A stretch of DNA of 64,000 nt from contig JAIUOH010000010.1 in assembly GCA_020161315.1 (NCBI GenBank), forward strand, positions 1 through 64,000, read 5' to 3'. Origin of the DNA: Actinomycetota bacterium. GTDB lineage: Bacteria; Actinomycetota; Actinomycetes; Actinomycetales; Microbacteriaceae. A model generated the notes under the pieces. The model did not search any database. It saw only the letters and a program-made list of their open reading frames with translations, and was not told where the DNA came from. The position numbers were made by a program, and so were the translations under genes. Below, one piece after another: positions 28,483-45,248 of the stretch (positions are counted from its first letter, which is position 1; each line of letters starts with the position of its first letter).

Positions 28483-29496
28483 ATGACGTCGACCTCACCC
28501 TCGCGGCCCCTGCTGATCGGTCACCGTGGAGCATCCGGGTATCGCCCAGAGCACACTGCTTCGGCGTATTTGCTTGCGTTTGAACAGGGCGTCGATGCGG
28601 TCGAACCCGACCTGGTGGTCTCGAGCGACGGCGTCGTTGTGATTCGCCACGAGAACGAGATTTCAGGCACAACAGACGTGGCCAATCACCCAGAGTTTGC
28701 CGATCGCCGCACCACGAAAGTGGTTGACGGGGTGACGCTCGACGGCTGGTTCACTGAAGACTTCACGTGGGCTGAGCTTGCAACTCTGCGCTGTCGGGAG
28801 CGCGTGCCCGAGCTGCGGGCGGGCAACGCTGCTTTTGACGGCACCGAGCGCATGTTGCGCCTGCACGACCTGTTGCAACTCGTTGACGAATGGAATGCGG
28901 CGCACGACAAGCCTGTTGGTCTCGTCATCGAGCTAAAGCATGTGGACTTTCTGCTTAGGCAAGGGCACGATCTTGTTGCGCTCATGCTCACCGAGCTTGC
29001 GGAGCGCGGCTGGGATCAAAGACCGGAGCTGCTCACAATCGAGTGCTTCGAGATCGACCCGCTCGACAGGCTTCGTGAGATGGGTACCCCCGCCAGGCTC
29101 ATTTTTTTGATGGAGAGCGCGGGATCGCCGCCCGATCAGATCTCGAAGTTTGGCGCAGAAGCGCACGAGTATGCGTGGTACCGCAGCGACGCCGGTCTCG
29201 ATGCTCTCGTGGGGCGCGTGCACGGCATCAGCCTCTCGAAGCGAGACCTTTTGGTGGTGAACGAGCGGCGGCACGCGATTGGTGTGCAAGACATCGTCGC
29301 GCGCGCGCACGCCAGAGGGCTGCTCGTGTTTACCTGGACGCTGCGCCCGGAGAACGGCTTTTTGGTGCCAGGTTTTCGCTCTGGCGCACACCGCGCCGAG
29401 TGGGGCGGTTGGCGTGATGAGTGGCGGCTAATCCTCTCAACCGGACTCGACGGGGTGTTTCTTGACCACCCCGACCTGCTTAACGAGGTGCTCTAG
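28483..29496 (+). CDS. Glycerophosphodiester phosphodiesterase
   Basis: A 337-residue GDPD-family TIM-barrel enzyme that hydrolyses glycerophosphodiesters to glycerol-3-phosphate and an alcohol. The catalytic signature GHRGASGYRPEHT (13-25) has both His/Arg and metal-binding Glu, and the second block is EPDLVVSSDGVVVIRH. No signal peptide, so it is probably cytoplasmic (UgpQ-like). Its product can feed GlpD. ATG 28483 follows TAGAGT (28470-28475) by 7 nt without a ribosome site, a leaderless arrangement. Confidence 0.92.
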   Translation: MTSTSPSRPLLIGHRGASGYRPEHTASAYLLAFEQGVDAVEPDLVVSSDGVVVIRHENEISGTTDVANHPEFADRRTTKVVDGVTLDGWFTEDFTWAELATLRCRERVPELRAGNAAFDGTERMLRLHDLLQLVDEWNAAHDKPVGLVIELKHVDFLLRQGHDLVALMLTELAERGWDQRPELLTIECFEIDPLDRLREMGTPARLIFLMESAGSPPDQISKFGAEAHEYAWYRSDAGLDALVGRVHGISLSKRDLLVVNERRHAIGVQDIVARAHARGLLVFTWTLRPENGFLVPGFRSGAHRAEWGGWRDEWRLILSTGLDGVFLDHPDLLNEVL

Positions 29497-30586: not shown

Positions 30587-30676
30587 GCCTCTATTCTGTC
30601 GTGTGTTCGCCGTGCGCGTGTGGCCGCAGCGATCCCGCGCACATAAATGTCAGTAGTCGCTTCTAGACTTGAAGCG

Positions 30677-33385
30677 ATGAACGATTTCGTGCTCCTTGAC
30701 CCCTCGGGGGTTCCGCTCGGGCAGCCCGCGGGTGAAGACCCGCTGGTTGCTGGGTTGAACCCGCAGCAGCGTCGTGCCGTTGAGGCACGTGGCCAGGCGC
30801 TGTTGATTGTTGCGGGCGCGGGATCAGGCAAGACCCGCGTACTTACTCACCGCATTGCGCAGCTAATTCGGGGCAGAGAAGCCTGGCCGAGCCAGATTCT
30901 CGCGATCACGTTTACGAATAAGGCTGCGGCCGAGATGCGTGAGCGCGTCGAAGATCTGCTCGGTGGCGACGTTGCCAGCGGCATGTGGATATCGACGTTT
31001 CACTCGGCATGCGTGCGAATTTTGCGGCGCGAGGCTGAGCGCTTTGGCTATGTCTCTGGTTTTACGATCTATGACTCTGCAGACTCGCGGGCGCTGCTGA
31101 AGCGCATTATCAAAGAGAGCGAGGCCGATAGCTACGGCTTTACCCCGGCAAACACCGGCTCGAAGATCTCGCGGTTGAAGAACGAGCTGCAAGATGCCGC
31201 GAGCTACCGCGCGGCTGCAAACGAGAGCGACCCGCGCGAGCGCATCTTTGTTGAGATTTTTCACGAGTATGAGCAGCAGCTGCGGCGCGCAAATGCCTTC
31301 GACTTCGATGACCTCATCGGGCAGACCGTGCACCTGTTTCGGGCGCACCCTGACGTGGCTGCCATCTACCAGCGACGTTTTCGGCACATTCTGGTTGACG
31401 AGTACCAAGACACGAACCACGCGCAGTACTCGCTCATTCGTGAGCTCACGCGCGGCGTTGACGCGGCCGATGTTGACCGACTCGTGCCGCCGGCGCGCGA
31501 GTTCGAGGTTGACGGTACTGGGCGTATTCCGGGTGCATCGCTTACCGTGGTCGGCGATAGCGACCAGTCGATCTACGCGTTCCGCGGGGCCGATATTCGC
31601 AACATTGTCGAGTTCGAGCGTGACTTCACGGGCGCCGAGGTAGTGAAGCTCGAGCAGAACTATCGCTCGACGCAAAACATCCTTTCGGCCGCAAACGCTG
31701 TGATCGGTAACAACTTTGACAGGCAAGAGAAGAACCTTTTCACCACCTCGGGCGACGGTGCGAAGCTTGTCGGCTTCACCGGGTACTCGCAGCACGACGA
31801 AGCACGCTTCGTGGCCGAAGAGATTGAAGATCTGCACCGTGCGGGCACGGCCTATGGTGACATCGCGGTGTTCTATCGCACCAACTCGCAGACCCGTGCA
31901 CTCGAAGAACTGCTGATTCGCGGGGCGATTCCGTATCGCGTGCTCGGTGGCACAAAATTCTACGAGCGGGCCGAGATCAAAGACGCGATGTCGTACCTCA
32001 CGAGCCTCGCAAACCCTTACGACCCAATTGCGTGGTCGCGCCTCATTGGGGTGCCCAAACGTGGCATCGGACCAATGGCCGAGGCGCAGCTCGCGCACTT
32101 TCAAGAGACCCAGGGCATCTCGTTTCACGACGCGATGTTGCGAGCCGATGAGGTGCCGTTCGGCCCAAAGGTGCGCGACGCGGTGAAGCAGCTCGGCGAG
32201 CTGCTGCTGCGGGCAACCCGCATGGCGATTGGCGGCGGGCCTACCGACATCAGCTACGACCCGCTCACCGGTGAAGTGCGCGACGAGGGCAGCCCAGGTG
32301 GCGGCTCGAGCGGTGCCGACGACGAGACGCGCAAGAAGCCAGCTCCCGTGGCAGACGTGCTGAAGCTCATTCTCGACGAGACCGAGATGATCGAGAAGCT
32401 GCGGGCAAAGCGAGACCCGCAAGATGAGGCACGCGCCGAGAACCTCGAAGAGCTCGTTTCTGTGGCGCGTGAGTTTGATGTGCGCAACCCCGGTGCTGGC
32501 TTGCTCGAGTTTCTCACCGAAGTGAGTCTGGTCGCCGCGGCAGACGACCTCGACGATCAGAGCGGCACGGTCTCGCTCATGACACTGCACACCGCGAAGG
32601 GCCTTGAATTCAACACGGTCTTCTTGACCGGTGTTGAAGAGGGGCTGATTCCACACCAGATGTCGGTCGATGAGGTCGGCGGCATTAGTGAGGAGCGCCG
32701 GCTCATGTATGTGGGCATCACGCGCGCCCGCGAACGCCTGTATTTGACGCTTGCGAGCACCAGGTCAACCTTCGGTGACATCAACGTCGCGATGCCCTCG
32801 CGTTTCTTGCAAGAGATTCCCGATGAGCTCGTTGAATGGCGGCAGTCGCCGGGTGAGGTGACCGGCACGGCCCGCTTGGGTCAAAACGCATCGCGTTTTG
32901 GCGCGGGACGTGCTGACGCTACTGCGTCAGGTGGTACCGAGTCGCAACGAGTCGCATCGCGCGCGTTGAACGCCCGGGGTGGCTCGGGCAGCTACGGTTC
33001 GCGCGGTGGCGCATCGAGGCGCCCGGTCGACTCGAATGTGAGCTTTGGTTCGTCTGGCGGCCGCATGTCTGGCAGCGCCGCAGTGAGTGAGCCCGCGAGC
33101 GGTGGCATGCAGTCGGCACTGGATCAGTGGCGTGAGCGCAAGCGTCTCGCAAAAGAGGCGCAAAAGAACGGCGGCGGGTTTCCGAACATGGTCGGCTCGA
33201 GCGTGCGTGACAACGGCGACCTCGAACTCGTGCCAGGCGATCGCATTCGCCACGACGACTACGGCGAGGGTCGGGTCACTGCGGTCACTGGCGAAGGCTC
33301 GAAGCGCATCGCGCACGCGGTGTTCGATTCGGTCGGCGACCGCAAATTGCTTATTAAGCTCTCGCCGATTGAGAAGGTTGAGTAG
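30677..33385 (+). CDS. pcrA: ATP-dependent DNA helicase UvrD/PcrA
   Basis: A 902-residue SF1A helicase for nucleotide excision repair and clearing of replication or recombination intermediates. Motifs: Walker A AGAGSGKT (46-53), TFTNKAAAEMRERV (Ia), LVDEYQDTN (II), GDSDQSIYAFRGAD (III), QNYRST (IV), TLHTAKGLEF (V) and the VI region with YVGITRARERLY. The C-terminal PcrA-type Tudor-like domain begins near PGDRIRHDDYGEGRV. Start ATG 30677: TAGACT (30664-30669) sits 7 nt upstream, ruling out the earlier ATG at 30647, which would lie upstream of the -10. A Gly/Ser-rich linker precedes the tail. Confidence 0.96.
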   Translation: MNDFVLLDPSGVPLGQPAGEDPLVAGLNPQQRRAVEARGQALLIVAGAGSGKTRVLTHRIAQLIRGREAWPSQILAITFTNKAAAEMRERVEDLLGGDVASGMWISTFHSACVRILRREAERFGYVSGFTIYDSADSRALLKRIIKESEADSYGFTPANTGSKISRLKNELQDAASYRAAANESDPRERIFVEIFHEYEQQLRRANAFDFDDLIGQTVHLFRAHPDVAAIYQRRFRHILVDEYQDTNHAQYSLIRELTRGVDAADVDRLVPPAREFEVDGTGRIPGASLTVVGDSDQSIYAFRGADIRNIVEFERDFTGAEVVKLEQNYRSTQNILSAANAVIGNNFDRQEKNLFTTSGDGAKLVGFTGYSQHDEARFVAEEIEDLHRAGTAYGDIAVFYRTNSQTRALEELLIRGAIPYRVLGGTKFYERAEIKDAMSYLTSLANPYDPIAWSRLIGVPKRGIGPMAEAQLAHFQETQGISFHDAMLRADEVPFGPKVRDAVKQLGELLLRATRMAIGGGPTDISYDPLTGEVRDEGSPGGGSSGADDETRKKPAPVADVLKLILDETEMIEKLRAKRDPQDEARAENLEELVSVAREFDVRNPGAGLLEFLTEVSLVAAADDLDDQSGTVSLMTLHTAKGLEFNTVFLTGVEEGLIPHQMSVDEVGGISEERRLMYVGITRARERLYLTLASTRSTFGDINVAMPSRFLQEIPDELVEWRQSPGEVTGTARLGQNASRFGAGRADATASGGTESQRVASRALNARGGSGSYGSRGGASRRPVDSNVSFGSSGGRMSGSAAVSEPASGGMQSALDQWRERKRLAKEAQKNGGGFPNMVGSSVRDNGDLELVPGDRIRHDDYGEGRVTAVTGEGSKRIAHAVFDSVGDRKLLIKLSPIEKVE

Positions 33386-33417
33386 CGGCCGCCCTTGTGG
33401 TGTTGCCGGTGTGCTGC

Positions 33418-34086
33418 TCAGGCCCGCCCGCGGCTCTGCCGCTGCGCTTCGATGTGAATGTGTGCGTTGATCTCTTCTGTCGTGATCTCGCCGCTGGGCA
33501 CCGGGGTCTGTGCTGACGTCGCGCGCAGCCCGTCGATCACGATTGCGAGCTGCCGAGAGATCACGTGCGATCGCGCGGGCTCTGGGAGCAGCCCGTACTC
33601 GCCGATGCGAAACGCGGCCATAGTGGCGTCGTTCACCTCGACGTCTTCTCGCAGCATGCCCTCCGCGTGTGCGCGTGCAGCGATGCTCTTGAGCGCGGCA
33701 TCCCACTGCGGGCCGAGCTCGTAATCGGGGTTGAGGTACGCCATCTTGCGGTAGATTACCGGAATCGCGGGGTGTGCTCCGATGGTGTGCGCAATGCCCG
33801 TGATTGCGGTCACGAGGGCATCCCACCCCGTGGGCCGAGCGAGCGATTGCTGAGCGACCTCTTCGAAGTGTGCCATGAGCGTCTCGTGTAGCGCTTCGAT
33901 TACTGCTTCCATGCTGCCGAAGCGTCGATACAGCGTAGCGCTGCTCACTCCCGCGGTTTCAGCGAGCGTCGACATTGTTGGCTCTGGCAATTGCACTTCG
34001 AAGAGCGACTCTGCGGCCTCGAGAATGCGTGCCCTGCTGCGGGTGACTTCAACGCGTTCAGCGCGCTGCCGCTTCGAGTTCGCCAT
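33418..34086 (-). CDS. TetR-family transcriptional regulator, divergent from the giant surface-protein gene
   Basis: A 222-residue regulator with an N-terminal TetR helix-turn-helix (TRSRARILEAAESLFEV, then AETAGVSSATLYRRFGSMEA) and an all-helical ligand domain. ATG 34086 is chosen: TACTAT lies 7 nt upstream on the minus strand (34099-34094) without a ribosome site, and the HTH then starts at the usual distance from the N-terminus. The perfect palindrome at 34134-34161 between this gene and its neighbour is the obvious operator candidate. Ligand unknown. Confidence 0.9.
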   Translation of the reverse strand: MANSKRQRAERVEVTRSRARILEAAESLFEVQLPEPTMSTLAETAGVSSATLYRRFGSMEAVIEALHETLMAHFEEVAQQSLARPTGWDALVTAITGIAHTIGAHPAIPVIYRKMAYLNPDYELGPQWDAALKSIAARAHAEGMLREDVEVNDATMAAFRIGEYGLLPEPARSHVISRQLAIVIDGLRATSAQTPVPSGEITTEEINAHIHIEAQRQSRGRA

Positions 34087-34109
34087 GACCTTAATAGTAG
34101 CGATGAGAG

Positions 34110-34138
34110 TTGAAGTGTGACGGTAATACAAATACTAT
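34110..34138 (+). promoter_or_regulatory. Promoter of the giant surface-protein gene
   Basis: TTGAAG (34110-34115), 17 bp, TACTAT (34133-34138): the best sigma-70-type promoter in the divergent region. Transcription should start near 34145, inside the palindrome, so the in-frame GTG at 34139 cannot be the translation start. Confidence 0.7.
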
Positions 34139-34161
34139 GTGGGGAGAAATCCCCACATAGT
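34134..34161. promoter_or_regulatory. Perfect 11-bp inverted repeat, candidate TetR operator
   Basis: ACTATGTGGGG-AGAAAT-CCCCACATAGT: 11-bp arms without mismatch and a 6-bp spacer. It begins in the -10 box and covers the predicted start site of the giant gene, and lies 35 bp upstream of the TetR -10. Position and symmetry suit a TetR dimer that represses the giant gene. Confidence 0.7.
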
Positions 34162-34195
34162 GGGGCTGTTGATGCTGACCGGGGGGCCCATCATC

Positions 34196-37100
34196 ATGAC
34201 AAAACGCAATGACGCGACGCCGCGCAACCTTCTTGCGCTCGTTTCGCGAGACACGCTTCGCGGTTTTGCTTCGCAGTGGTGGCGTATGCTGCTCGTGCAG
34301 TTGCTCGCCCTTCTCGCGGTGTCGATTCCGGTGATAGCAGTCACTGCTGGTGTCGTGCTCGGCAAAGACGGCATCATGAGGTTTCTCGCCGCAAACCCAC
34401 TGCAGGCCGAAGGGCGCCTCGCAGGGGTCGGCATCGCAGTCGCGCTCGGGGCGGTGCTCCTGTCATTGCCGTTTCTCGTTGCTGCGCTGATTGCGATCGC
34501 AACGCTGGTAGATCCTGGCGTTGACAGGGGCAAAGATCGCAGCGCACGCTTCCGGCCAGCCCTGCGAACTGGGGTGATGCGCTTGTTCCCGGCTGGAGCT
34601 GCGCTACTTGTCGCGATTGCGCTTTGCTTCGGGGCGCTTATCGTGTCGCCGTTCCTGGTGCTCGCCGGACTGTTGGGATTGCTCGTCACCTCGGTATTGC
34701 GTCTTGCGAGGCCAGAACTCGCGAAGCGTCATGCCTGGGCAAACCCCGCGCGCTGGGGATTTATTGCCATTCCGTTCGCGGTCGCCCTGCGCCAGGTGGC
34801 GACTGCTTTTCTGTTGTTTCCGGTTGCGGTGTTTGAGGGCAGCAGCCCCCGCCGCGTCTGGGGCGCCGCAATGACGCTCGCAAAGCATCGACGGGTGCTG
34901 ATCCTTGTTGTAGCAGGCATCGCAACGCTGCTCAGCGTCGCGCTGGTCAGCTTCGGCGCGCTACTCGGGACCAGCATCGGTAGCGGCATTGCGTTGACGC
35001 TAGTTGGCACTCTTGTCGAGTTCATCGCGATTCCATTGCCGACCGTGGTCGCGGTCATGCTCTATCGAAGGCTCGGCGGCGAGGGCGCGTTGTCTAGGCC
35101 ATCGAAGGTGCCAGCACGCGCGCCGGGTAGTGACGCTGCGACGCGAGTCGGGAAGGTATCGCCAGCGTACGCGCGACTCGCTGCGGTGACCGCTGCGGCG
35201 ATCGCGATCAGCGGCATCGTGCTGCCGCCAGCTGCGGCGGTGGCCGTCGCGGGAAACTCCTACACAGTGACCTCTAATGCCGACGCGCTTGACGCCGGCG
35301 TGATCGCGGCTCAGCAGGCCAGCTGTGCGATGGCGGGAGGTGACTGCACGCTGCGGGGCGCTCTGCGCGCGGCGCAAGCGGCGGCAGAGGCAGGTGCCGA
35401 GGGCGCACGAATTTCGTTCGCGTCAGGCATGACCATTTCGGTTGCTGGGCCGCTCACGTTCAGCCCCGCAGAAACCCCGGCGCTCGTGAGCGGCGCGGTG
35501 CTCGAAATCGACGGTGGTGGCCAGGGCGTTGTGCTCGACGGTGCCATCTCGACGCAGATCATGCTCGTCACGAGTGAGTTCTGGAACCTGCGGGTCGCAG
35601 GCCTTACGATGCAGAACGGGTGGGCGCAAGACGGTGCGGCACTGCTTGCGGGGGTGAATCAGACCTCTCTTGACCGAGTGGTCTTCGAAAACAACACCGC
35701 TTCGACAAGCGCAGGCGCGGTGTTCGGGCGTGCACTGACGGTGACACGCAGCACCTTCATCAACAACCGTGCTCGGTACTACGGAGCGTTGGCATCCGGT
35801 GGCGCGATTCGCGCGACGGGTGCCGTGAGTGTCGAGAACTCGACGTTCTCGCAGAACGCGGTCGGCGATGAGTTTTCGGGAGCGATTGACCGTGGGGCAG
35901 ACGTCTACAGTGACGGGCCGCTCACCGTGCGTAGCAGTACGTTCTCGAATTATGAGCGCGGCTCTCTGAGTACGGCGTCGACGCAGGCGACAGTGACGAA
36001 CTCGATCTTCACCACGAACTGGGGAAGCGGTGGGTCGGCTTGCCGCGGCCCGGTCGCATTCAGCGGTGGCAACAACATCATGCCGAACGGGGACACGACG
36101 TGCCCGGGAACGCAGGGCACCCAGACTGCGTTTCAGGTCTTGTCGGTACTCGACACGACGGGCGCCGTGCCGGTGTTTCCGCTTAACCCGTCGGCGGGCA
36201 ACCCGGCGATGCAGCGCGGCGCAGATTGCCCGGCCGAAGACGCACTTGGCCGCACGCGCCCCGCGCAGGGGTGCGACCTCGGATCTGCCGAGACTGAAGG
36301 CGGCACGTCGCTGACCCTCGAAACGGTGCCTGACGCCGCCCAATTCGGCCGGGTCGCGCTTCGCGCAACGGTGACGAGCGTGTCAGGTGCGGTGCCGACG
36401 GGCGAGGTGAACTTCGTGGTCGATGGCGGCGCTGGCCAGACGGTTTCGTTAGCTGCGGTGCCGGGCGTCGCGGGAGCTGCTCGGGCCGAGCTGAGCGTAG
36501 ACCTCGCGGGGATCGGGGTCTCGCACGCGGTGACGGCCGCGTACGTGCCAGACGGGGTGCTGCGCCCGAGCGACGCCAGCACCGACTACACCCCGCAACC
36601 GCTACGGCGCGATGTCTCGCTCGACTGCTTTGGCGGCGAGGCGCACACGACCGCGGGCTGCACGAGTGCCGACTGGAACATCGTAGACAGTGCCTCGATT
36701 GACCTGGCTGCGACGCTTGCCCCAGACAGCGAGCCGGGCACCATCACGCTCACGAGCGACGAGGCGGGCCAGCATGAGATCGCCGCCCCCGTAGCGGTCG
36801 ACCAGCAGAACCGCACCGCCGAGTTTACGCTGAGCGGAACCGACCTCGGGCTCGGCGCACATTCGATCTACGCCGCCTACCGCAGCGACAGCCAGGAGTA
36901 CGTGGGGTTGTCGCCGCTGCGCACCGTCACCGTGCTGCGCACCCCAACGGTGACGCTCTCGATGCCAGGCGGCAGCGGTCAGTACGGCGACCAGGTGGCT
37001 GGGCTCGCAACAGTGGCAGTGACGGGCGCGCAAGGGGCCGCGACCCCCACCGGGTCGGTCACGGTGCGGGGCCAGAGCGCGCAGCTCGACGCCACCGGCA

Positions 37101-40100
37101 CCGCCCACCTTGACCTCAGCCTGTTGCCGGGGGGCGACCAGCAGCTCACGGCCAGCTACACGGGCGATAGCGTCTACGGTGCAGCCGAGTCGAACCTCGT
37201 GACCTACCGCACCACCCAGACGAGTAGCAGCATTGCAATCGAAAGCGTTGACCCTGCGGGCGCGCGGTTCGGTGACGCGATCTCGGCCACGATCAGGGTG
37301 GGTGCTGACACTCCAAGCACGGCCGATCCGTTCGGCACGGTTACCGTGGTGGCCGACGCCGGTACCCCGGCAGAACGAACTTTTGACCCGGTGAGCATCA
37401 CGCCAGACGCCACGCGTGACGGCAGTGTCATGGTGACTGCCCCGATTGCCGCGGGTGTGCTCACCGGCGGCGAACACGAACTGACCGCGACGTTCACCCC
37501 CACCACCGCGAGTTTCGCCGCCTCCTCGACGGTCGCTCCATTCGGTGTCGAAATCGCCGCGGCTGCGACCACCACTTCGCTCGCCGCCAGCGCCGATCAC
37601 GCAGCGTTCGGCGAACAAGTAACGCTCACCGCAACCGTCACGGGCCCCGGCCTCGGGGGCGCTGGTGCGCAAACGGTCGCGTTCGCCGCGGGCAGTCGTG
37701 CGCTCGGCACCGCGACTACCTCGCCGTGCGGCGGTGATCCGAATTGCGCGGTCGCGACGCTGATCGTTGATGCCGAAACGGTCGGACTCGGTGCGGTCGA
37801 CCTCACCGCCTCGCTCGAGGCATCTCCCAACTATGCCGCCTCGAGAGGCGAAATCGCGGGATACGCGGTGGCAAAGGCGACACCGACCGTCACGATGCAG
37901 GCGCCCGGTGCACTTTTCTACCAGGATCATGACCAGATCAGCGTGCACATTGAGGCCGCAGGGTACCTGCCCGCCGACGGGGCAGAAGTGGTGCTCGAGG
38001 CCAGGGCCGCAGGCGGCGCACCGATCCCACTCGGCAGCGTACATCTCACCAACGGATCGAAAACCATGCCGCTCAACCCGGCCGCCCTTGGGCTGCTGCC
38101 GGGAAGCTACACGCTGACGGCAAGTTTCGCTGGCAACGATAGCTTCGAAGCTGGATCCGCAACCACGACGCTTGAGGTGCGCGCCGCCGCGACCCGGGTG
38201 AGCTGGGATTCGAGCGCACTCCCCGGCGCAGCGGCGTTTGGCGATTCGGTCACCGTGCCGGTTACCGTGACCAACACTTCGACCGGCGAGCGCCCCGAAG
38301 GGGAGGTCGTGCTCACCTGGAACGGCGTCGAGCTCGGACGTTCGACGCTCGGCGACGCGCACGACGCAAGCGGTGCGAGCCGCACTGTCACGGTGCGAGC
38401 AACGTTCGGCGCCCAACTCACCGTTCCCACGGACGGCAGACTCACTGCCGAGTTCGTGCCCGCGGCTGGCTTCGCCGTCTCGAAACTGAGCGAGGCCGCC
38501 CCCGACGACCGCAAGGTGATCGTGCTGCAGCCGGTGCCCGCCGCGGTCGATCTGCAGCTGACTGCCGTGCTCGGCCAGGCGCTCGCCGCCGAGGCGACGG
38601 TGACCGCCGGCCCAGCTGACCTCGGCATCGTGCCGCGCGGCTACGTCACGTTCACCCTGAATAGGAGCGGCCTCGGCCTGCAAGAGCTCGGCCCGGTGGC
38701 GCTCGTCGATGGGCGCGTGTCGCTCGCCGAGGCCCTGACCGCGAACCACCTCGACCCGGTGCTGGTCGATCTCGCGGGTACCTGGTCGGTGCGCGCAACC
38801 TATCAAACGGGAAACCTCGACCCGCGCATCGTCGCGCAGCTGCCCGCGAGCACCGCGCTGAAGTCGGTGAATATCACCGCTGGCTCGTCAGGCGTCACCG
38901 CGGCGGCGCCGAATAGCATCGAGCTCGGGCAAACCCTCAGGGTGACGGCAAGCGTGGTGGGCGCAGTGACCCCCACCGGTCGCGTGCGGGTCGAGCGCTG
39001 GGATGGAGCCGGCTATCAGACCGTCAGTGACGAGACAGATCTTGCACACGGGGACGCCTCGATCGTGGTGAACGGCTCGCTGCCGCTCGGCACCCAGCAG
39101 CTGCGGGTGCACTATGTCGGCAACGGCACACTGGCCGCAGCGAACTCAGCGCCCTTTGAGGTCTCGGTGCAGCCCGCAAGCAGCACCGTCACGGTCACGA
39201 GCGTGAACTCGCCCTACCCAGCGATCATCGGTGGCAAAGCCGGCTACACCGCGACGGTCACCTCGGCGCTCGGTGCCCCAGCTGGCTATGTGACCTTCTT
39301 CCGCGACAGCACTCAGATCGGGCAGGCGACCCTTGCGCCCGAACTCGGTGGCGGCAGTGCGTCGGCGTCGATCCTCGTGCCCGTAGGCGAAGCGTGGTCG
39401 GGCGACATCGTTGCGCGAGTCACTTCTGGTCAGGCCAACATCGTCGGCGGCGAGGGCAGGCTCGCGCATCGCTGGCAGCAGGCTCCTGTGCTGCTCGAAT
39501 TGAACGGCCCGCTCGCGAACACCATCGGATCGCCCAGCAACTACTTCGTGACGGCGCAGCTTGACTGGCACCAGTTTCAGTACCTGCCCGAACTCCTGCG
39601 GCCCGCCGCTCCCAGCGGCACCGTCACCATCAGCGACGGCTCGGGGGCGGTCTGTCACGCGAATCTCGTCGACCAGGGTGGGCAACTGAGCCGTGGCAGC
39701 TGCAACCTGAGCTTCGACGGCGTCGGCCAGCACTCGGTCACCGCAGAGTTCGCTGGTGACCACAGCTATGAACCCGAAACCTCTGCGGCGCTGATCACTA
39801 CGGTCAGCAAGGGCACGCCAACCCTGACACTGACAGCGCCAGAAGAGCCGTGGCGGGGGCTCACCAGTATCCCCGTGAGCTGGAACGTCGTTGGCCCAGA
39901 TCAGGGTGGCACGGTCACGGTGACCAGGGGCACACAGACCGTGTGCAGTTCGGCGTCGATGTCGGGTTCGTGCGAGGTGCCGATTCCGGCCTTCGACCGC
40001 TCGCAGTTTGGTGCGCGATTGCTGCTGCAGTACAGCGGTACCCCGAACTGGAACTATGTCGATAAGAGCGTCACCGGCTCGATTGATGCCTGCGTTCCGT

Positions 40101-42961
40101 ACCTCGAACCCGTGGCGCTGCCTGTTGGCTCTGCAACGGTCACGGTTAGCCCGGGCCAGACGACCTGCGGCAGCGGCGAGGCCGCTGGCTTCTACGTGTC
40201 AGATCGAATCGTGTTCTCGGCGACGCCCGAGCCCGGCAGGCGCATAACCGGGTTCTCGGGTGCCCCCGTGGGCGAATATGGCGATCGCTTTCCGTACCCC
40301 AAGGAGTCGATCAGCTTCGGCTCGAACGGCTCGGCCTGGATGATCGCCTCACCGACGGTTGTGACTGACAACGGTGTGCAGGTGCCGTTCACTGCGGCTC
40401 CGGTCACTGAGGCCGAGTGCATCACGGCGACGATTCGGGTGACCGGACTGCCCGCTGGCATGAGCGGTCGCGACGTCGTCGACTGGTTCACGAACCAGAG
40501 GTGCGGCCTGCAATCGACAAAGATCGACAACTCGAGGTGGCAGGTGCCGATTGAGGCGGGCTCGAAGCTGACGGTGCGCTATTACGGGCAGACGCTGCCC
40601 GAGCGCATGAAGTTCTACGGATGGCAGGGCGCCTTTGCAGGCGACGCCTTCGCTGATCGAGCTAGCTACACGATCGTTCCCGACAGTAACGTGATCGATG
40701 TGCCGTTCGGGCCGGTGTGCTTTACGGGCACCCCGAAGCTGGCCCAGCCGAGCGACGGTACCATTACTGTCACCCTCGCGAAGCCGAACTGCTACGACCC
40801 GCAGACGAAAACAAGCGGATGGACGTTCGGCTCGGTCGGACTCGCGACGCTCAGCGACAGCGTCGGCGAGAGCGTGCAATCGGTCAAACAGACGTATACC
40901 CTGCCGAACGGTGCCGCGCGATCGTATGACACGACGGCCTGGGTTGCTCAGAAGCCCGTCTATTTTGAGCGCTGGATCGGCGCGACCGACCAAATTCGCG
41001 ACTATGCGAGCGACACGAGCACCGATGCGAACGGCGTGCGACGATCGTCGCGAACCGTGCTGTTCAAAATCGCCGAGCGGCCCTACGACCTCAGCGCGAG
41101 CTACGGTCGATGCGCGACGCTGGGCGCCGAGGTGATTGGTGATAGCTCAGCCGGCCCGCCAGGCACCATCACGATGCAGACCGACGCGAACTGCCCGCTT
41201 GGCGCGGGATACAACGGGGAGCGTTGGTACAAGCTCGGCACACAGGTCAGCCTCAGTACGGCCGCGACGAGCGCGGTGAAGTCGAGCACTTCGCTGAAGT
41301 TTTTGGGTTGGGCAGGCGCCCCGATCGCGAAGAACCAGCTGCTGAGCCCGACGATCAGCTTTGCGCTGAATGAAGATGCTCGCGTGACCGCCTCGTACGG
41401 CACGAACGCGAACTGTAGGCCGCTCAAAGTTCAGGCGGTACCAGCGGGTGCGCTGAGCCTCGACACGAAGTTCTCGCTCGGATCGAACGCCTGTGCCGCG
41501 ATGTACGGCGACAAGTTCTACGACCAGGGCACCTCGGGCAACGGCATCACGATCGACGCGAGCGCCGCCACCACCGAGGCGCAGGGCGCCGAGACTGTCT
41601 TTGTTTGGAGCACCAACGAGCCGAACACGAACAACGAGATCAGCAAGATTTGGAGCCGCAGTAGCTCGCTCAACGAGGAGCTCTACGGGCCCTCGCAGGT
41701 GATCGCATACGCCTGCGAGTTCGTGAAAATCGACGCGGCAGTATCAGCCCCCGGCGGCACGGTGGTGGCCAGCGCGGGCGCCACCAATATGACGCGAGAC
41801 TCGAAAATCGACCGCTTCGTGCAAACGCAAGACGCGAACTGCGGCACGGGTTCAGACCCGAAATCGGGGTACGCGGGCTACGCCTGGACTGTGGGTACAG
41901 AGCTGACCCCACTTGTGGCCGCCGACCCCGCAGCGTATCGGTTTACCGGCTGGTCGGGCGATGCGAGCGGCAGCGGTGAAAGCCCGAACGCGCCCGTCAA
42001 ACTGGTCGGAGCCGGGCACACCGCGAGCGGGCAGAACTACCACTACCGGGTGACCGCAAACTTCGAGGCCATCTGTTACACGCTCTCGATACCTTCGGAC
42101 GCCGACAAGGTGGAGGTGCTGACCGCGCCGAACTGCCCGGGGGTCGACGCGTCGAAACACCAGTACCTCGGCGGCACCGCGGTCGTGCTGCACGCGGCAG
42201 ACAAGGGCGACACGCTGTTTCGAAACTGGGTGAGCGGCGTCGACGCCGTCGATGACGATCCGCACTGGGCATCCGTGATCATGGACAGCGATGCGAAAGT
42301 CGTTCCGTACTACTCGACGAAGTCGGTGGGGGAGCAGCTCAGCAGTTACGGTGCGCTTGTCGGCGACGCGATGGCGATCGCTTCGAAGAAGATGGTCGGC
42401 ATCGCCTCGGCAGCCGTGGCCGCGTACGTGAAGGTGCTGTTCTCGAAGGTCACGCTGGTGGCGCAAGGGATCAGCTACGCCGCGCAGGGGCTTGAACTGC
42501 TGGGCGTGCACGGAGCCGGCCTTGACGCTGTGAAGAACGGTGCGGCGGCGATGGAGAACATGATTGCCCTGATGTGGGCGCCGCTCGACTGCATCACCGC
42601 CTGGTCTGCGGGTGGTGAGAACACCGCGGTGTACGCGGCGCAGAATGCCATCGGTGTCGCGGTGGTCACTGCGCTGTCATCGGGTGCGCAGCAGCAGTCG
42701 CAGAGTGCGCCAGACAGCACGCTTGCGAAGCTCAAAGCCCAGGCGCAGGCGGCCAAGGCCGCGGCCACGCCGGGAACCCAAGCGGTGAAAGCGATCACTG
42801 CGGCAAAGTCGGTGTATGACGCTGCCGCAGCGGGCAATATCGGCATCGAGACCTCGGCATACGAGGCGTGGGGGTCGCAGGCCAGTCTCGACGTGTTCAG
42901 CACCTGCATGACGAACCGCGCGACGGGCACCATGGAGAGCATGTGGGCGGTCGGCGGTTAA
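34196..42961 (+). CDS. Giant membrane-anchored surface protein: polytopic membrane domain + beta-helix + Ig-like array + Cys-paired InlB-like repeats
   Basis: About 2,921 residues; no known full-length counterpart comes to mind. In order: (1) residues 20-300, five or six membrane helices resembling the membrane domain found in some GDPD proteins (SSPRRVWGAAMTLAKHRR is a typical loop); (2) a further hydrophobic helix near 335-362; (3) about 363-700, a CSLREA-type parallel beta-helix (CTLRGALRAAQ, then runs of N and S/T turns such as VENSTFSQNA); (4) about 700-1960, ten or more Ig-like domains with the recurring FGD.V...V.V and LTASYTGD pattern; (5) about 1965-2710, seven repeats each with a Cys pair and an F.GW.G motif; (6) an Ala-rich helical C-terminus. 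No signal peptidase site or LPXTG is seen, so anchoring should be by the N-terminal helices. ATG 34196 is preferred; ATG 34172 is possible. Controlled by the promoter/palindrome at 34110-34161. Function, perhaps adhesion, is inferred. Confidence 0.85.
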   Translation: MTKRNDATPRNLLALVSRDTLRGFASQWWRMLLVQLLALLAVSIPVIAVTAGVVLGKDGIMRFLAANPLQAEGRLAGVGIAVALGAVLLSLPFLVAALIAIATLVDPGVDRGKDRSARFRPALRTGVMRLFPAGAALLVAIALCFGALIVSPFLVLAGLLGLLVTSVLRLARPELAKRHAWANPARWGFIAIPFAVALRQVATAFLLFPVAVFEGSSPRRVWGAAMTLAKHRRVLILVVAGIATLLSVALVSFGALLGTSIGSGIALTLVGTLVEFIAIPLPTVVAVMLYRRLGGEGALSRPSKVPARAPGSDAATRVGKVSPAYARLAAVTAAAIAISGIVLPPAAAVAVAGNSYTVTSNADALDAGVIAAQQASCAMAGGDCTLRGALRAAQAAAEAGAEGARISFASGMTISVAGPLTFSPAETPALVSGAVLEIDGGGQGVVLDGAISTQIMLVTSEFWNLRVAGLTMQNGWAQDGAALLAGVNQTSLDRVVFENNTASTSAGAVFGRALTVTRSTFINNRARYYGALASGGAIRATGAVSVENSTFSQNAVGDEFSGAIDRGADVYSDGPLTVRSSTFSNYERGSLSTASTQATVTNSIFTTNWGSGGSACRGPVAFSGGNNIMPNGDTTCPGTQGTQTAFQVLSVLDTTGAVPVFPLNPSAGNPAMQRGADCPAEDALGRTRPAQGCDLGSAETEGGTSLTLETVPDAAQFGRVALRATVTSVSGAVPTGEVNFVVDGGAGQTVSLAAVPGVAGAARAELSVDLAGIGVSHAVTAAYVPDGVLRPSDASTDYTPQPLRRDVSLDCFGGEAHTTAGCTSADWNIVDSASIDLAATLAPDSEPGTITLTSDEAGQHEIAAPVAVDQQNRTAEFTLSGTDLGLGAHSIYAAYRSDSQEYVGLSPLRTVTVLRTPTVTLSMPGGSGQYGDQVAGLATVAVTGAQGAATPTGSVTVRGQSAQLDATGTAHLDLSLLPGGDQQLTASYTGDSVYGAAESNLVTYRTTQTSSSIAIESVDPAGARFGDAISATIRVGADTPSTADPFGTVTVVADAGTPAERTFDPVSITPDATRDGSVMVTAPIAAGVLTGGEHELTATFTPTTASFAASSTVAPFGVEIAAAATTTSLAASADHAAFGEQVTLTATVTGPGLGGAGAQTVAFAAGSRALGTATTSPCGGDPNCAVATLIVDAETVGLGAVDLTASLEASPNYAASRGEIAGYAVAKATPTVTMQAPGALFYQDHDQISVHIEAAGYLPADGAEVVLEARAAGGAPIPLGSVHLTNGSKTMPLNPAALGLLPGSYTLTASFAGNDSFEAGSATTTLEVRAAATRVSWDSSALPGAAAFGDSVTVPVTVTNTSTGERPEGEVVLTWNGVELGRSTLGDAHDASGASRTVTVRATFGAQLTVPTDGRLTAEFVPAAGFAVSKLSEAAPDDRKVIVLQPVPAAVDLQLTAVLGQALAAEATVTAGPADLGIVPRGYVTFTLNRSGLGLQELGPVALVDGRVSLAEALTANHLDPVLVDLAGTWSVRATYQTGNLDPRIVAQLPASTALKSVNITAGSSGVTAAAPNSIELGQTLRVTASVVGAVTPTGRVRVERWDGAGYQTVSDETDLAHGDASIVVNGSLPLGTQQLRVHYVGNGTLAAANSAPFEVSVQPASSTVTVTSVNSPYPAIIGGKAGYTATVTSALGAPAGYVTFFRDSTQIGQATLAPELGGGSASASILVPVGEAWSGDIVARVTSGQANIVGGEGRLAHRWQQAPVLLELNGPLANTIGSPSNYFVTAQLDWHQFQYLPELLRPAAPSGTVTISDGSGAVCHANLVDQGGQLSRGSCNLSFDGVGQHSVTAEFAGDHSYEPETSAALITTVSKGTPTLTLTAPEEPWRGLTSIPVSWNVVGPDQGGTVTVTRGTQTVCSSASMSGSCEVPIPAFDRSQFGARLLLQYSGTPNWNYVDKSVTGSIDACVPYLEPVALPVGSATVTVSPGQTTCGSGEAAGFYVSDRIVFSATPEPGRRITGFSGAPVGEYGDRFPYPKESISFGSNGSAWMIASPTVVTDNGVQVPFTAAPVTEAECITATIRVTGLPAGMSGRDVVDWFTNQRCGLQSTKIDNSRWQVPIEAGSKLTVRYYGQTLPERMKFYGWQGAFAGDAFADRASYTIVPDSNVIDVPFGPVCFTGTPKLAQPSDGTITVTLAKPNCYDPQTKTSGWTFGSVGLATLSDSVGESVQSVKQTYTLPNGAARSYDTTAWVAQKPVYFERWIGATDQIRDYASDTSTDANGVRRSSRTVLFKIAERPYDLSASYGRCATLGAEVIGDSSAGPPGTITMQTDANCPLGAGYNGERWYKLGTQVSLSTAATSAVKSSTSLKFLGWAGAPIAKNQLLSPTISFALNEDARVTASYGTNANCRPLKVQAVPAGALSLDTKFSLGSNACAAMYGDKFYDQGTSGNGITIDASAATTEAQGAETVFVWSTNEPNTNNEISKIWSRSSSLNEELYGPSQVIAYACEFVKIDAAVSAPGGTVVASAGATNMTRDSKIDRFVQTQDANCGTGSDPKSGYAGYAWTVGTELTPLVAADPAAYRFTGWSGDASGSGESPNAPVKLVGAGHTASGQNYHYRVTANFEAICYTLSIPSDADKVEVLTAPNCPGVDASKHQYLGGTAVVLHAADKGDTLFRNWVSGVDAVDDDPHWASVIMDSDAKVVPYYSTKSVGEQLSSYGALVGDAMAIASKKMVGIASAAVAAYVKVLFSKVTLVAQGISYAAQGLELLGVHGAGLDAVKNGAAAMENMIALMWAPLDCITAWSAGGENTAVYAAQNAIGVAVVTALSSGAQQQSQSAPDSTLAKLKAQAQAAKAAATPGTQAVKAITAAKSVYDAAAAGNIGIETSAYEAWGSQASLDVFSTCMTNRATGTMESMWAVGG
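40088..42325 (+). repeat. Seven Cys-paired InlB-like repeats in the giant protein
   Basis: Each unit starts with Cys, continues 25-45 residues to a second Cys (often NC, as in DANCPLG or KPNCYDP), then reaches an F.GW.G or similar motif and a closing V.A.Y/F strand. Unit starts are recognisable at CVPYLEP, CITATIRV, CFTGTPKL, CATLGAEV, CRPLKVQA, CEFVKIDA and CYTLSIPS. The units are too diverged at DNA level to be recent copies. Confidence 0.65.
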
Positions 42962-42981
42962 GAGGTCGCACGGATTGTGGC

Positions 42982-43024
42982 TGCCATGCCACTGCCGCAA
43001 CAGTCGCGCGGCAGTGGCATGGCA
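42982..43024. terminator. Long hairpin after the giant gene
   Basis: TGCCATGCCACTGCCGC (42982-42998) and its perfect 17-bp complement (43008-43024) flank a 9-nt loop, 20 nt after the stop. No clear U-tract follows, but position and stability suggest a transcript end. Confidence 0.65.
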
Positions 43025-43145
43025 CAGCGAGGGTTTCGTAAGATCGCGGTGCTACACTTGGCAACTGGTCGAGTTATCTCGACGTCGAGACATTTTTCTG
43101 CCTCGGTTCAATTCTGACCAATAGCGAAGGACAAAGGGACAGTAC

Positions 43146-44315
43146 GTGGATCTGTACGAGTACCAGGCACGAGATCTTTTCGAACAGTACGGGGTGCCGG
43201 TGCTCGCCGGTATCGTCGCGGACACTCCTGAGGAGGTGCGCGCTGCTGCCGAGAAGATCGGCGGTGTCGTCGTCGTGAAGGCTCAGGTAAAGACTGGTGG
43301 CCGCGGCAAGGCTGGCGGTGTGAAGGTTGCAAAGACCCCAGACGAGGCATACGAGGCTGCTCAGGCGATCCTCGGCCTTGATATTAAGGGCCACGTCGTC
43401 AAGCGGGTGATGGTCGCTGCTGGCGCCGACATCAAGCAGGAGTTCTACTTCTCGGTGCTGCTCGACCGAGCAAACCGCTCGTACCTCTCGCTCTGCAGCG
43501 TCGAGGGCGGCATGGAGATCGAGGTGCTCGCGGTCGAGAAGCCCGAGGCGCTCGCTCGCATCGAGGTCAACCCGATCACGGGCATCGACGCTGCGAAGGC
43601 AGAAGAGATCGCACGCGCTGCGAACTTCCCTGAAGAGCTCATCGCCAAGGTTGCGGCTGTGTTCGTGAAGCTCTACGAGGTCTACGTCGGCGAAGACGCA
43701 ACCCTCGTCGAGGTCAACCCGCTGGTGCTGACAGGTGAGGGCGAGATCATCGCGCTCGACGGCAAGGTCTCTCTCGACGAGAACGCAGACTTCCGTCAGC
43801 CGAGCCATGAGGCGCTCGCCGACAAGTCGGCTGAAGACCCGCTCGAGGCGAAGGCCAAGGCTCAAGACCTCAACTACGTGAAGCTCGACGGTGAGGTGGG
43901 TGTCATCGGTAACGGTGCTGGCCTCGTGATGTCGACCCTCGACGTTGTTGCCTACGCTGGTGAGAACCACGGCGGCGTGAAGCCCGCCAACTTCCTCGAC
44001 ATCGGCGGCGGCGCCTCGGCTGAGGTTATGGCCGCTGGTCTCGACGTCATCCTCGGTGACCCGCAGGTGAAGTCGGTGTTCGTGAACGTCTTCGGCGGCA
44101 TCACCGCGTGTGACGCAGTCGCAAACGGTATCGTGGGCGCGCTCGCCAAGCTTGGCGATGCAGCGAACAAGCCGCTCGTTGTGCGCCTCGACGGCAACAA
44201 CGTCGAAGAGGGCCGCGCAATTCTGAACGAGGCGAACCACCCGCTCGTCGTTCAGGCCGCCACCATGGACGAGGGCGCCGACAAGGCCGCCGAGCTCGCA
44301 AACGCAGCCGCCTAA
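43146..44315 (+). CDS. sucC: Succinyl-CoA ligase (ADP-forming), beta subunit
   Basis: A 389-residue beta subunit with an N-terminal ATP-grasp domain ([19 protein letters not shown], then [16 protein letters not shown]) and a C-terminal flavodoxin-like ligase domain ([12 protein letters not shown]). With SucD it interconverts succinyl-CoA and succinate in the TCA cycle with substrate-level phosphorylation. GTG 43146 after AAAGGGAC. Adjacent to sucD (30 nt) in a two-gene operon closed by a strong terminator. Confidence 0.97.
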
Positions 44316-44345
44316 GCGCACGAGACGAAGAGAGAGTTTAGAACT

Positions 44346-45248
44346 ATGTCTATCTTCCTGAACAAGGATTCAAAGGTCATCGTGCAGGGCATCACCGGCG
44401 GCGAGGGCACCAAGCACACCGCCCGCATGCTCGCCGCTGGCACGCAGATTGTGGGCGGCGTGAACGCCCGCAAGGCTGGCACTACCGTGTCGCACGTGAA
44501 CGCCGCTGGCGAGACCGTCGAACTGCCCGTGTTCGCCACGGTTGGCGAGGCGATGGCTGCTACCGGCGCTGACGTCTCGGTCGCATTCGTGCCCCCGGCC
44601 TTCACTAAGGACGCTGCGGTTGAGGCGATTGACGCTGGCATCGGCCTGCTCGTCATCATCACCGAGGGTGTGCCCGTCAAGGACTCGGCTGAGCTCTGGG
44701 CTCACGCCAAGGCCACCGGTAACAAGACCCGCATCATCGGCCCGAACTGCCCCGGCATCATCACCCCCGGTGAGGCACTCGCAGGCATCACGCCCGCGAC
44801 CATCACCGGCAAGGGCCCCATCGGCCTCGTCTCGAAGTCGGGCACCCTGACCTACCAGATGATGTACGAGCTGCGCGATCTCGGTTTCTCGACCGCGATC
44901 GGCATCGGTGGCGACCCCGTCATCGGCACCACGCACATCGACGCGCTCGCCGCGTTTGAGGCTGACCCCGAGACCAAGGCGATTGTCATGATCGGTGAGA
45001 TCGGTGGCGACGCTGAGGAGCGCGCGGCAGAGTTCATCAAGGCGAACGTGACGAAGCCCGTTGTCGGCTACGTCGCAGGCTTCACCGCTCCCGAGGGCAA
45101 GACCATGGGCCACGCAGGTGCCATCGTGTCTGGCTCGGCTGGCACCGCACAGGCGAAGAAGGAGGCCCTCGAGGCCGCCGGCGTTCGCGTGGGCAAGACG
45201 CCTACCGAGACCGCTCAGCTCCTGCGAGCAGCATTCGCTGAGCTGTAA
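44346..45248 (+). CDS. sucD: Succinyl-CoA ligase, alpha subunit
   Basis: A 300-residue alpha subunit: CoA-binding Rossmann domain near the N-terminus ([13 protein letters not shown]) and ligase domain with the phosphorylated histidine in [14 protein letters not shown] (His256). Forms the alpha-beta enzyme with SucC. GAGAGAG upstream of ATG 44346. Succinate made by PrpB joins the cycle just downstream of this step. Confidence 0.97.

What the first reader, a model, noticed from the sequence alone, without database searches (positions are those of the whole stretch)
34196..42961. Giant protein joining a multi-helix membrane domain to beta-helix, Ig-like and InlB-like arrays
One intact frame of about 2,921 codons encodes five or six N-terminal membrane helices, a further helix, a CSLREA-type beta-helix, ten or more Ig-like domains, seven Cys-paired repeats and an Ala-rich C-terminus. 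Large actinobacterial surface proteins normally use a signal peptide plus a C-terminal LPXTG or single helix; here an apparently polytopic domain takes the anchor position. I know of no described family with this order. Role (adhesion, cell-cell contact) is inference.
Basis: partly seen in the sequence, partly recalled or inferred. Interest (0 to 1): 0.78.

Follow-up and report, generated by a model that had tools for sequence, protein, structure and literature searches.

The report
Giant surface protein with internal signal
A Leucobacter genome carries a giant rod-like surface protein that starts with about six membrane helices followed by what looks like a second, internal export signal; the same layout is kept in relatives from other genera, so it is a real protein family that the databases and papers searched do not describe.

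Summary
The 2,921-codon frame at 34196-42961 is real, intact and conserved. I found 11 full-length members, window included (a second copy in this genome, one collinear over its whole length in a Rhodoglobus MAG, eight more), all in one family, Microbacteriaceae. Each has a helical N-terminal membrane domain (mostly six segments), a seventh hydrophobic segment, Ig-like domains, seven Cys-paired repeats and a helical C-terminal domain; none has an LPXTG-like motif or terminal helix. The last 20 cysteines keep one order (2+7+1 pairs) in 11 of 11, so this is a fixed rod, not an expanding adhesin array. N- and C-terminal trees give the same outer clades: the fusion is old. The membrane domain is distantly related to GPDPase_memb proteins. 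Best reading: the helices insert first, segment 7 starts export of a disulphide-braced rod, probably cleaved and wall-held; adhesion is inference. Structure predictions were too poor to use. Rare: 9 of 398 family genomes sampled.

The parts
34196..42961 (+). Giant CDS, 2,921 aa
   Evidence: Open frame, conserved relatives, purifying selection
34196..35080 (+). N-terminal membrane domain (about residues 1-295), six hydrophobic segments, distant GPDPase_memb relative
   Evidence: Hydropathy; alignment of 11 members; hhalign to standalone GPDPase_memb-type proteins prob 96.3, E 1.8e-9, three controls prob 0.2-1.1
35177..35251 (+). Segment 7 (residues 328-344) and signal-peptidase-like site (AxA ending at residue 348, 350 or 352)
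35252..36295 (+). Beta-helix region (about residues 353-700), starts with a Cys pair in a CSLREA-like motif
   Evidence: POMP repeat E 8.2e-5 in the window; choice-of-anchor Q in four relatives (E 5.5e-8 to 0.0011)
36296..40045 (+). Ig-like array (about residues 701-1950); its last two domains each hold a conserved Cys pair
   Evidence: Ten Big_3_5 stretches; Cys pattern
40091..42319 (+). Seven Cys-paired, InlB-like repeats (residues 1966-2708)
   Evidence: Same seven pairs in 11 of 11 members
42320..42958 (+). C-terminal helical, Ala-rich domain with two conserved Cys and a conserved Trp (residues 2709-2921)
   Evidence: Alignment of 10 members
33418..34131 (-). Divergent TetR-type regulator (ORF limit; start codon not settled)
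   Evidence: TetR_N E 5.4e-10
34134..34161 (.). Perfect 12-bp inverted repeat with 4-bp spacer between the TetR gene and the giant: operator candidate, or terminator-like hairpin on the minus strand

Best explanation
A fixed-length, disulphide-braced exported rod carried behind its own membrane domain. Shown: the order of parts, its conservation, the paired-cysteine pattern, and the absence of a C-terminal anchor. Inferred: the N-terminal helices, a diverged GPDPase_memb-type domain, insert first through Sec with the N-terminus inside; segment 7 then acts as an internal signal peptide that starts export of about 2,570 residues; signal peptidase I cuts behind it, as it does in LtaS; the rod (beta-helix, Ig-like domains, seven Cys repeats, helical tip) folds outside, stays in or on the wall and binds something, most likely a surface or another cell. 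The membrane domain may stay as a partner. A divergent TetR regulator probably controls expression.
For: Eleven full-length members share the order. Hydropathy finds six segments before segment 7 in 8 of 11, five in one, seven in two. Loop charge fits N-in and C-out. Strict AxA near the end of segment 7 in 10 of 11 against 27 of 82 at other segments, Fisher p 3e-4; the eleventh has VFA. Cysteines behind segment 7 are even in number in 11 of 11 (20-30 each) and the last 20 keep one order. N- and C-terminal trees agree on clades L100+L080+L099 and L070+L057+L075. Precedent: LtaS is cut by SpsB behind a polytopic domain (passages of PMC10865820).
Against: The region behind segment 7 is rich in Ala: shuffling each 19-residue stretch gives AxA in 6.5 of 11 expected, 10 seen; the product of the ten per-member values is about 0.008, worked by hand, and members are related, so this is moderate evidence. 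No signal-peptide predictor was at hand and cleavage is not shown. AlphaFold2 models were poor, mean pLDDT 44.7 and 49.5. Pfam alone does not call the membrane domain: GPDPase_memb in 2 of 9 members, best E 0.15. Nothing tests adhesion.
Confidence: 0.45

Rival explanations
1. Uncleaved seven-helix anchor: the polytopic domain and segment 7 hold the giant rod in the membrane for good.
For: No C-terminal anchor in 11 of 11; domain and rod stay in one frame and share outer clades; the beta-helix of some members ends in a choice-of-anchor Q domain, a name that as I recall marks proteins whose anchors vary.
Against: Segment 7 carries a signal-peptidase-like site more often than the other segments.
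Confidence: 0.33
2. Contact device: the C-terminal domain is membrane-active and the rod presents it to a neighbouring cell.
For: The C-terminal domain holds hydrophobic helical stretches in several members (max mean hydropathy 1.58 in the window, 1.9-2.1 in L076, L077, L078, L080, L099) and is the part most alike between window and L068 (64-73% per 100 residues from 2601 to 2900).
Against: No toxin or pore-forming family matches; the domain is conserved, unlike the variable tips of polymorphic toxins (recalled).
Confidence: 0.1
3. Two products from one frame: internal starts before segment 7 make a separate secreted protein.
For: An ATG or GTG lies shortly before or within segment 7 in 11 of 11 members.
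Against: The best Shine-Dalgarno match there is 4 of 6 bases, 3 of 6 in the window (the main starts were not scored).
Confidence: 0.05
4. Dual Sec-Tat insertion, with segment 7 handled by Tat.
For: Such proteins exist (start of the abstract of PMC5449189); an RR pair lies within 30 residues before segment 7 in 6 of 11 members.
Against: The window protein has no RR there; ten disulphide pairs suggest folding outside.
Confidence: 0.03
5. Artefact: frameshift, misassembly or chance fusion.
For: The genome is a 74-contig draft with 5.29% estimated contamination.
Against: Ten independent full-length relatives and a collinear alignment under purifying selection; the contig's sucC is 96% identical to a same-genus genome.
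Confidence: 0.01

Closest known systems
LtaS (lipoteichoic acid synthase) of Staphylococcus aureus
   Same: Polytopic N-terminal domain followed by a large outside part, with a signal-peptidase site behind the last helix (passages of PMC10865820)
   Different: LtaS is an enzyme of about 70 kDa with no repeats; no sequence relation was tested; here cleavage is only predicted
GPDPase_memb (PF10110) and DUF7544 membrane proteins
   Same: Profile match over about 127 columns, including the loop motif around ..VLE..GP..A.RR.W..
   Different: The standalone relatives are 358-629-aa frames, not giants; Pfam does not call the domain here
Choice-of-anchor Q / CSLREA beta-helix proteins
   Same: Beta-helix with CSLREA-like start in 6 of 11 members, choice-of-anchor Q in four
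   Different: Starts behind six helices instead of at the N-terminus; CSLREA model below cut-off
Ig-like giant adhesins such as BAP of Acinetobacter
   Same: Long Ig-like arrays (start of the abstract of PMC4647330)
   Different: That paper calls BAP highly polymorphic; here the Cys-repeat number is fixed at seven in 11 of 11

Membership tests
LPXTG cell-wall-anchored surface protein | C-terminal LPXTG motif and helix | tested here: not met
   0 of 11 members
LPXTG cell-wall-anchored surface protein | N-terminal cleavable signal peptide | tested here: not met
   The hydrophobic segment with a signal-peptidase-like site is the last of several, at residues 305-344
GPDPase_memb (PF10110) | Match above the curated Pfam cut-off | tested here: not met
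   2 of 9 members match at all, best E 0.15
GPDPase_memb (PF10110) | Remote profile similarity | tested here: met
   hhalign prob 96.3, E 1.8e-9; single-sequence version prob 92.0; controls 0.2, 1.1, 0.4. The seven comparison proteins were drawn from weak hits of my own profile; 5 of 7 pass the Pfam cut-off on their own
Bacterial Ig-like (Big_3_5) | Match above cut-off | tested here: met
   181.3 bits against 35.5, ten stretches
CSLREA proteins (TIGR04214) | CSLREA_Nterm model above cut-off | tested here: not met
   No match in the window; best in 5 members E 0.091
Divergent InlB B-repeat (PF18998) | Match above cut-off | tested here: not met
   E 0.0028 in L057 and 0.022 in L068, below cut-off; none in the window
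LtaS-like signal-peptidase-processed polytopic protein | Cleavage behind the last helix | not testable with these tools
   Only a motif was tested: AxA 10 of 11, 6.5 expected from composition
Dual Sec-Tat membrane proteins | Twin arginine before the last helix | tested here: not met
   Window lacks RR; 6 of 11 members have it

The most novel reading that the evidence does not exclude
A new export design for giant Gram-positive surface proteins: a polytopic, lipid-handling membrane domain carries an internal signal peptide, is cut from its rod by signal peptidase, and stays as the rod's membrane partner, while the conserved, partly hydrophobic helical tip of the rod inserts into or docks on a neighbouring cell, making a cell-cell bridge of set length.
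Probability: 0.12. Interest if true: 0.85.

Novelty: new variant of a known kind. Interest (0 to 1): 0.58.

Why it matters
If right, it is an undescribed family of giant surface proteins in which a multi-helix domain and an internal signal peptide replace the usual signal peptide plus C-terminal anchor, and in which the Cys-repeat number is fixed rather than variable. It would add a second kind of protein to the LtaS type of processing and give a clean system to ask how a Gram-positive cell releases or keeps a rod of about 2,570 residues.

Tried and rejected
Rejected or empty: whole-protein search of the PDB by sequence, 0 hits, and by profile with N- and C-terminal alignments, 0 hits. AlphaFold2 of residues 2620-2921 and 1-374 with 4 and 3 sequences gave mean pLDDT 44.7 and 49.5; I ran no fold search on them because low-confidence models give meaningless matches. 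G314 (L101) was dropped as a member: its match covers only the signal region (profile positions 299-360) and it reads as a protein with an N-terminal signal peptide and a C-terminal helix with an Arg tail. Shared gene neighbours: none common to the family. A planned control alignment (A11) was dropped because that protein is not a membrane protein by its sequence. In one search one row was read in the wrong frame; the corrected alignment is. The first genome-contig scan with residues 1-668 confirmed no relative; the second, with the C-terminal profile, gave six loci, of which three (L071-L073, Acidobacteria, Flavobacteriaceae, Bacteroidetes) match only a stretch of 95-115 residues and were not counted. 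Paper searches for the family or its hosts listed nothing that describes it.

Full report
WHERE IT IS. The window is contig C72 of a 3.01-Mb, 74-contig genome. Its genus is Leucobacter: a same-genus genome (G061) holds the 3,369-base contig that the public record names 'uncultured Leucobacter sp.'. The giant lies between pcrA/uvrD (30647-33385) and sucC-sucD (43146-45248), behind a divergent TetR-type gene and a perfect 12-bp palindrome at 34134-34161. Of the 54 genus genomes searched for sucC, I fetched the pcrA-sucC region of 20; all 20 hold both genes, none holds the giant (tblastn, E 1e-5), and the gap runs from 126 to 11,393 bases with different genes. So the site is a variable slot.

The frame is intact and coding.

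IT IS A FAMILY. A profile of the C-terminal end found members in 8 of 398 family genomes; a profile of the N-terminal membrane domain matched 16 of 398, of which 8 genomes (10 places, E 1.4e-14 or better) lie in frames of 2,334-3,008 codons and 8 are weak (E 3.8e-6 to 4.8e-4; seven in frames of 694 codons or fewer, one being G314, rejected). Together 9 genomes hold a member. One named public relative is in a Rhodoglobus MAG, one in 'Micrococcales bacterium 73-13' (the same as G085). In the genus, 2 of 54 genomes have members: this one, with two copies, and G061, in fragments (a third, G013, matches at E 1e-3 in a 143-codon frame). Outside the family: of 297 genomes of the order 18 match, the window's own at E 1e-92 or better and 17 at E 2.6e-8 to 9.3e-4 in frames of 300-1,039 codons; of 346 genomes of the phylum 3 match, the own and two at about 6e-4 in short frames. 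So, in these samples, the giant form is confined to Microbacteriaceae and rare there.

MEMBERS. Eleven full-length: window; L057 (own genome, contig C25); L068; L070/L074; L075; L076; L077; L078 and L099 (one genome); L080; L100. Fragments: L056/L069 and L079. The copy in contig C25 could be a contaminant (estimated contamination 5.29%); I did not test that.

ANATOMY. Before segment 7, hydropathy finds six segments in 8 of 11, five in L078, seven in L070 and L080. Loop charges of the window fit an inside N-terminus and outside rod. A beta-helix with a CSLREA-like Cys pair follows in window, L068, L076, L077, L078 and, by reading, in L070; the other five go on without it. Behind segment 7 the number of Cys is even in 11 of 11: 30, 30, 30, 26, 26, 20, 24, 20, 20, 20, 20. 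The last 20 are 2 pairs in Ig-like domains, 7 in the repeats, 1 in the C-terminal domain, in 11 of 11; that they pair this way is inferred from spacing. A repeat's best match in another member is the repeat of the same number in 401 of 770 comparisons, and in 177 of 420 between beta-helix clade and the rest (1 in 7 by chance), while repeats within one protein are hardly alike. Thus the array is ancient and fixed.

ONE UNIT. Trees of the N-terminal 330-350 residues and of the Cys-repeat and C-terminal part both give L100+(L080+L099), fully supported, and L070+(L057+L075), supported at 87/84 in the N-terminal tree and 100/99 in the other; the branching among window, L068, L076, L077 and L078 is open in the N-terminal tree. 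Window and L068 are 29-43% identical over residues 1-400 and 64-73% over 2401-2900 apart from small dips; per-hundred values. dN/dS is about 0.4 overall and 0.25 in the C-terminal domain; dS of the N-terminal part is near saturation.

THE MEMBRANE DOMAIN. hhalign against seven standalone proteins gives prob 96.3, E 1.8e-9; five of the seven pass the GPDPase_memb cut-off. Controls: a Bax inhibitor-type protein 0.2, two other polytopic proteins (MFS-like and antiporter-like by my reading) 1.1 and 0.4. The controls were single sequences; the like-for-like test with one GPDPase_memb protein gave 92.0. Caution: the seven were picked because my own profile had hit them.

SEGMENT 7. In the window: LAAVTAAAIAISGIVLP-PAAAVAVA-GNS. 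Strict AxA occurs near its end in 10 of 11 and at 27 of 82 other hydrophobic segments of the same regions (Fisher p 3e-4); the other segments were not sorted by side of the membrane. Shuffling each stretch shows that Ala content alone would give 6.5 of 11, so the order of residues adds only moderate evidence. The looser -3/-1 rule is met in 11 of 11 but is weak. LtaS is the precedent: SpsB cuts it behind a polytopic domain (passages of PMC10865820). Twin arginine is absent in the window, and internal starts have poor ribosome sites.

CONTEXT OF RELATIVES. In 3 of 3 full-length loci of clade L057, L070, L075 the next gene, overlapping or abutting the giant's stop, encodes a 204-227-aa lipoprotein-like protein (lipobox); two of the three (L057, L070) have two-component genes just upstream. 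The window's own giant has neither.

VERDICT. A real, old, rare, undescribed family (as far as the named searches go); an architecture variant of giant surface proteins with a likely internal signal peptide. Function as an adhesion or contact rod is inference.

Noticed in passing
L057:12134-12817, L070:11455-12069, L075:11474-12124: Lipoprotein-like gene directly behind the giant in all three full-length loci of one clade; no Pfam match.
   Followed up: partly
L057:1196-4007 and L070:1337-3303: Two-component regulator genes just upstream of the giant in two of three loci of that clade.
   Followed up: partly
window 33386-43145 (pcrA-sucC gap): Variable slot in the genus: other genes, or none, in 20 of 20 fetched relatives.
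   Followed up: partly
L036:2811-4538: In G007, whose sucC is the most alike, the slot holds a 575-aa protein with bacterial TSP3 repeats and one helix near its start.
   Followed up: partly
window 34134-34161: Perfect 12-bp palindrome between the TetR gene and the giant; it also scores as a terminator-like hairpin on the minus strand.
   Followed up: partly
L101:2619-10304 (-): A 2,561-aa surface protein of usual build in another genome of the family: signal peptide at the start, helix with Arg tail at the end.
   Followed up: no
L077:2332-3312 and window 28483-29496: GDPD-type genes, 52% identical, lie beside or near the giant in these two loci; may be chance.
   Followed up: no
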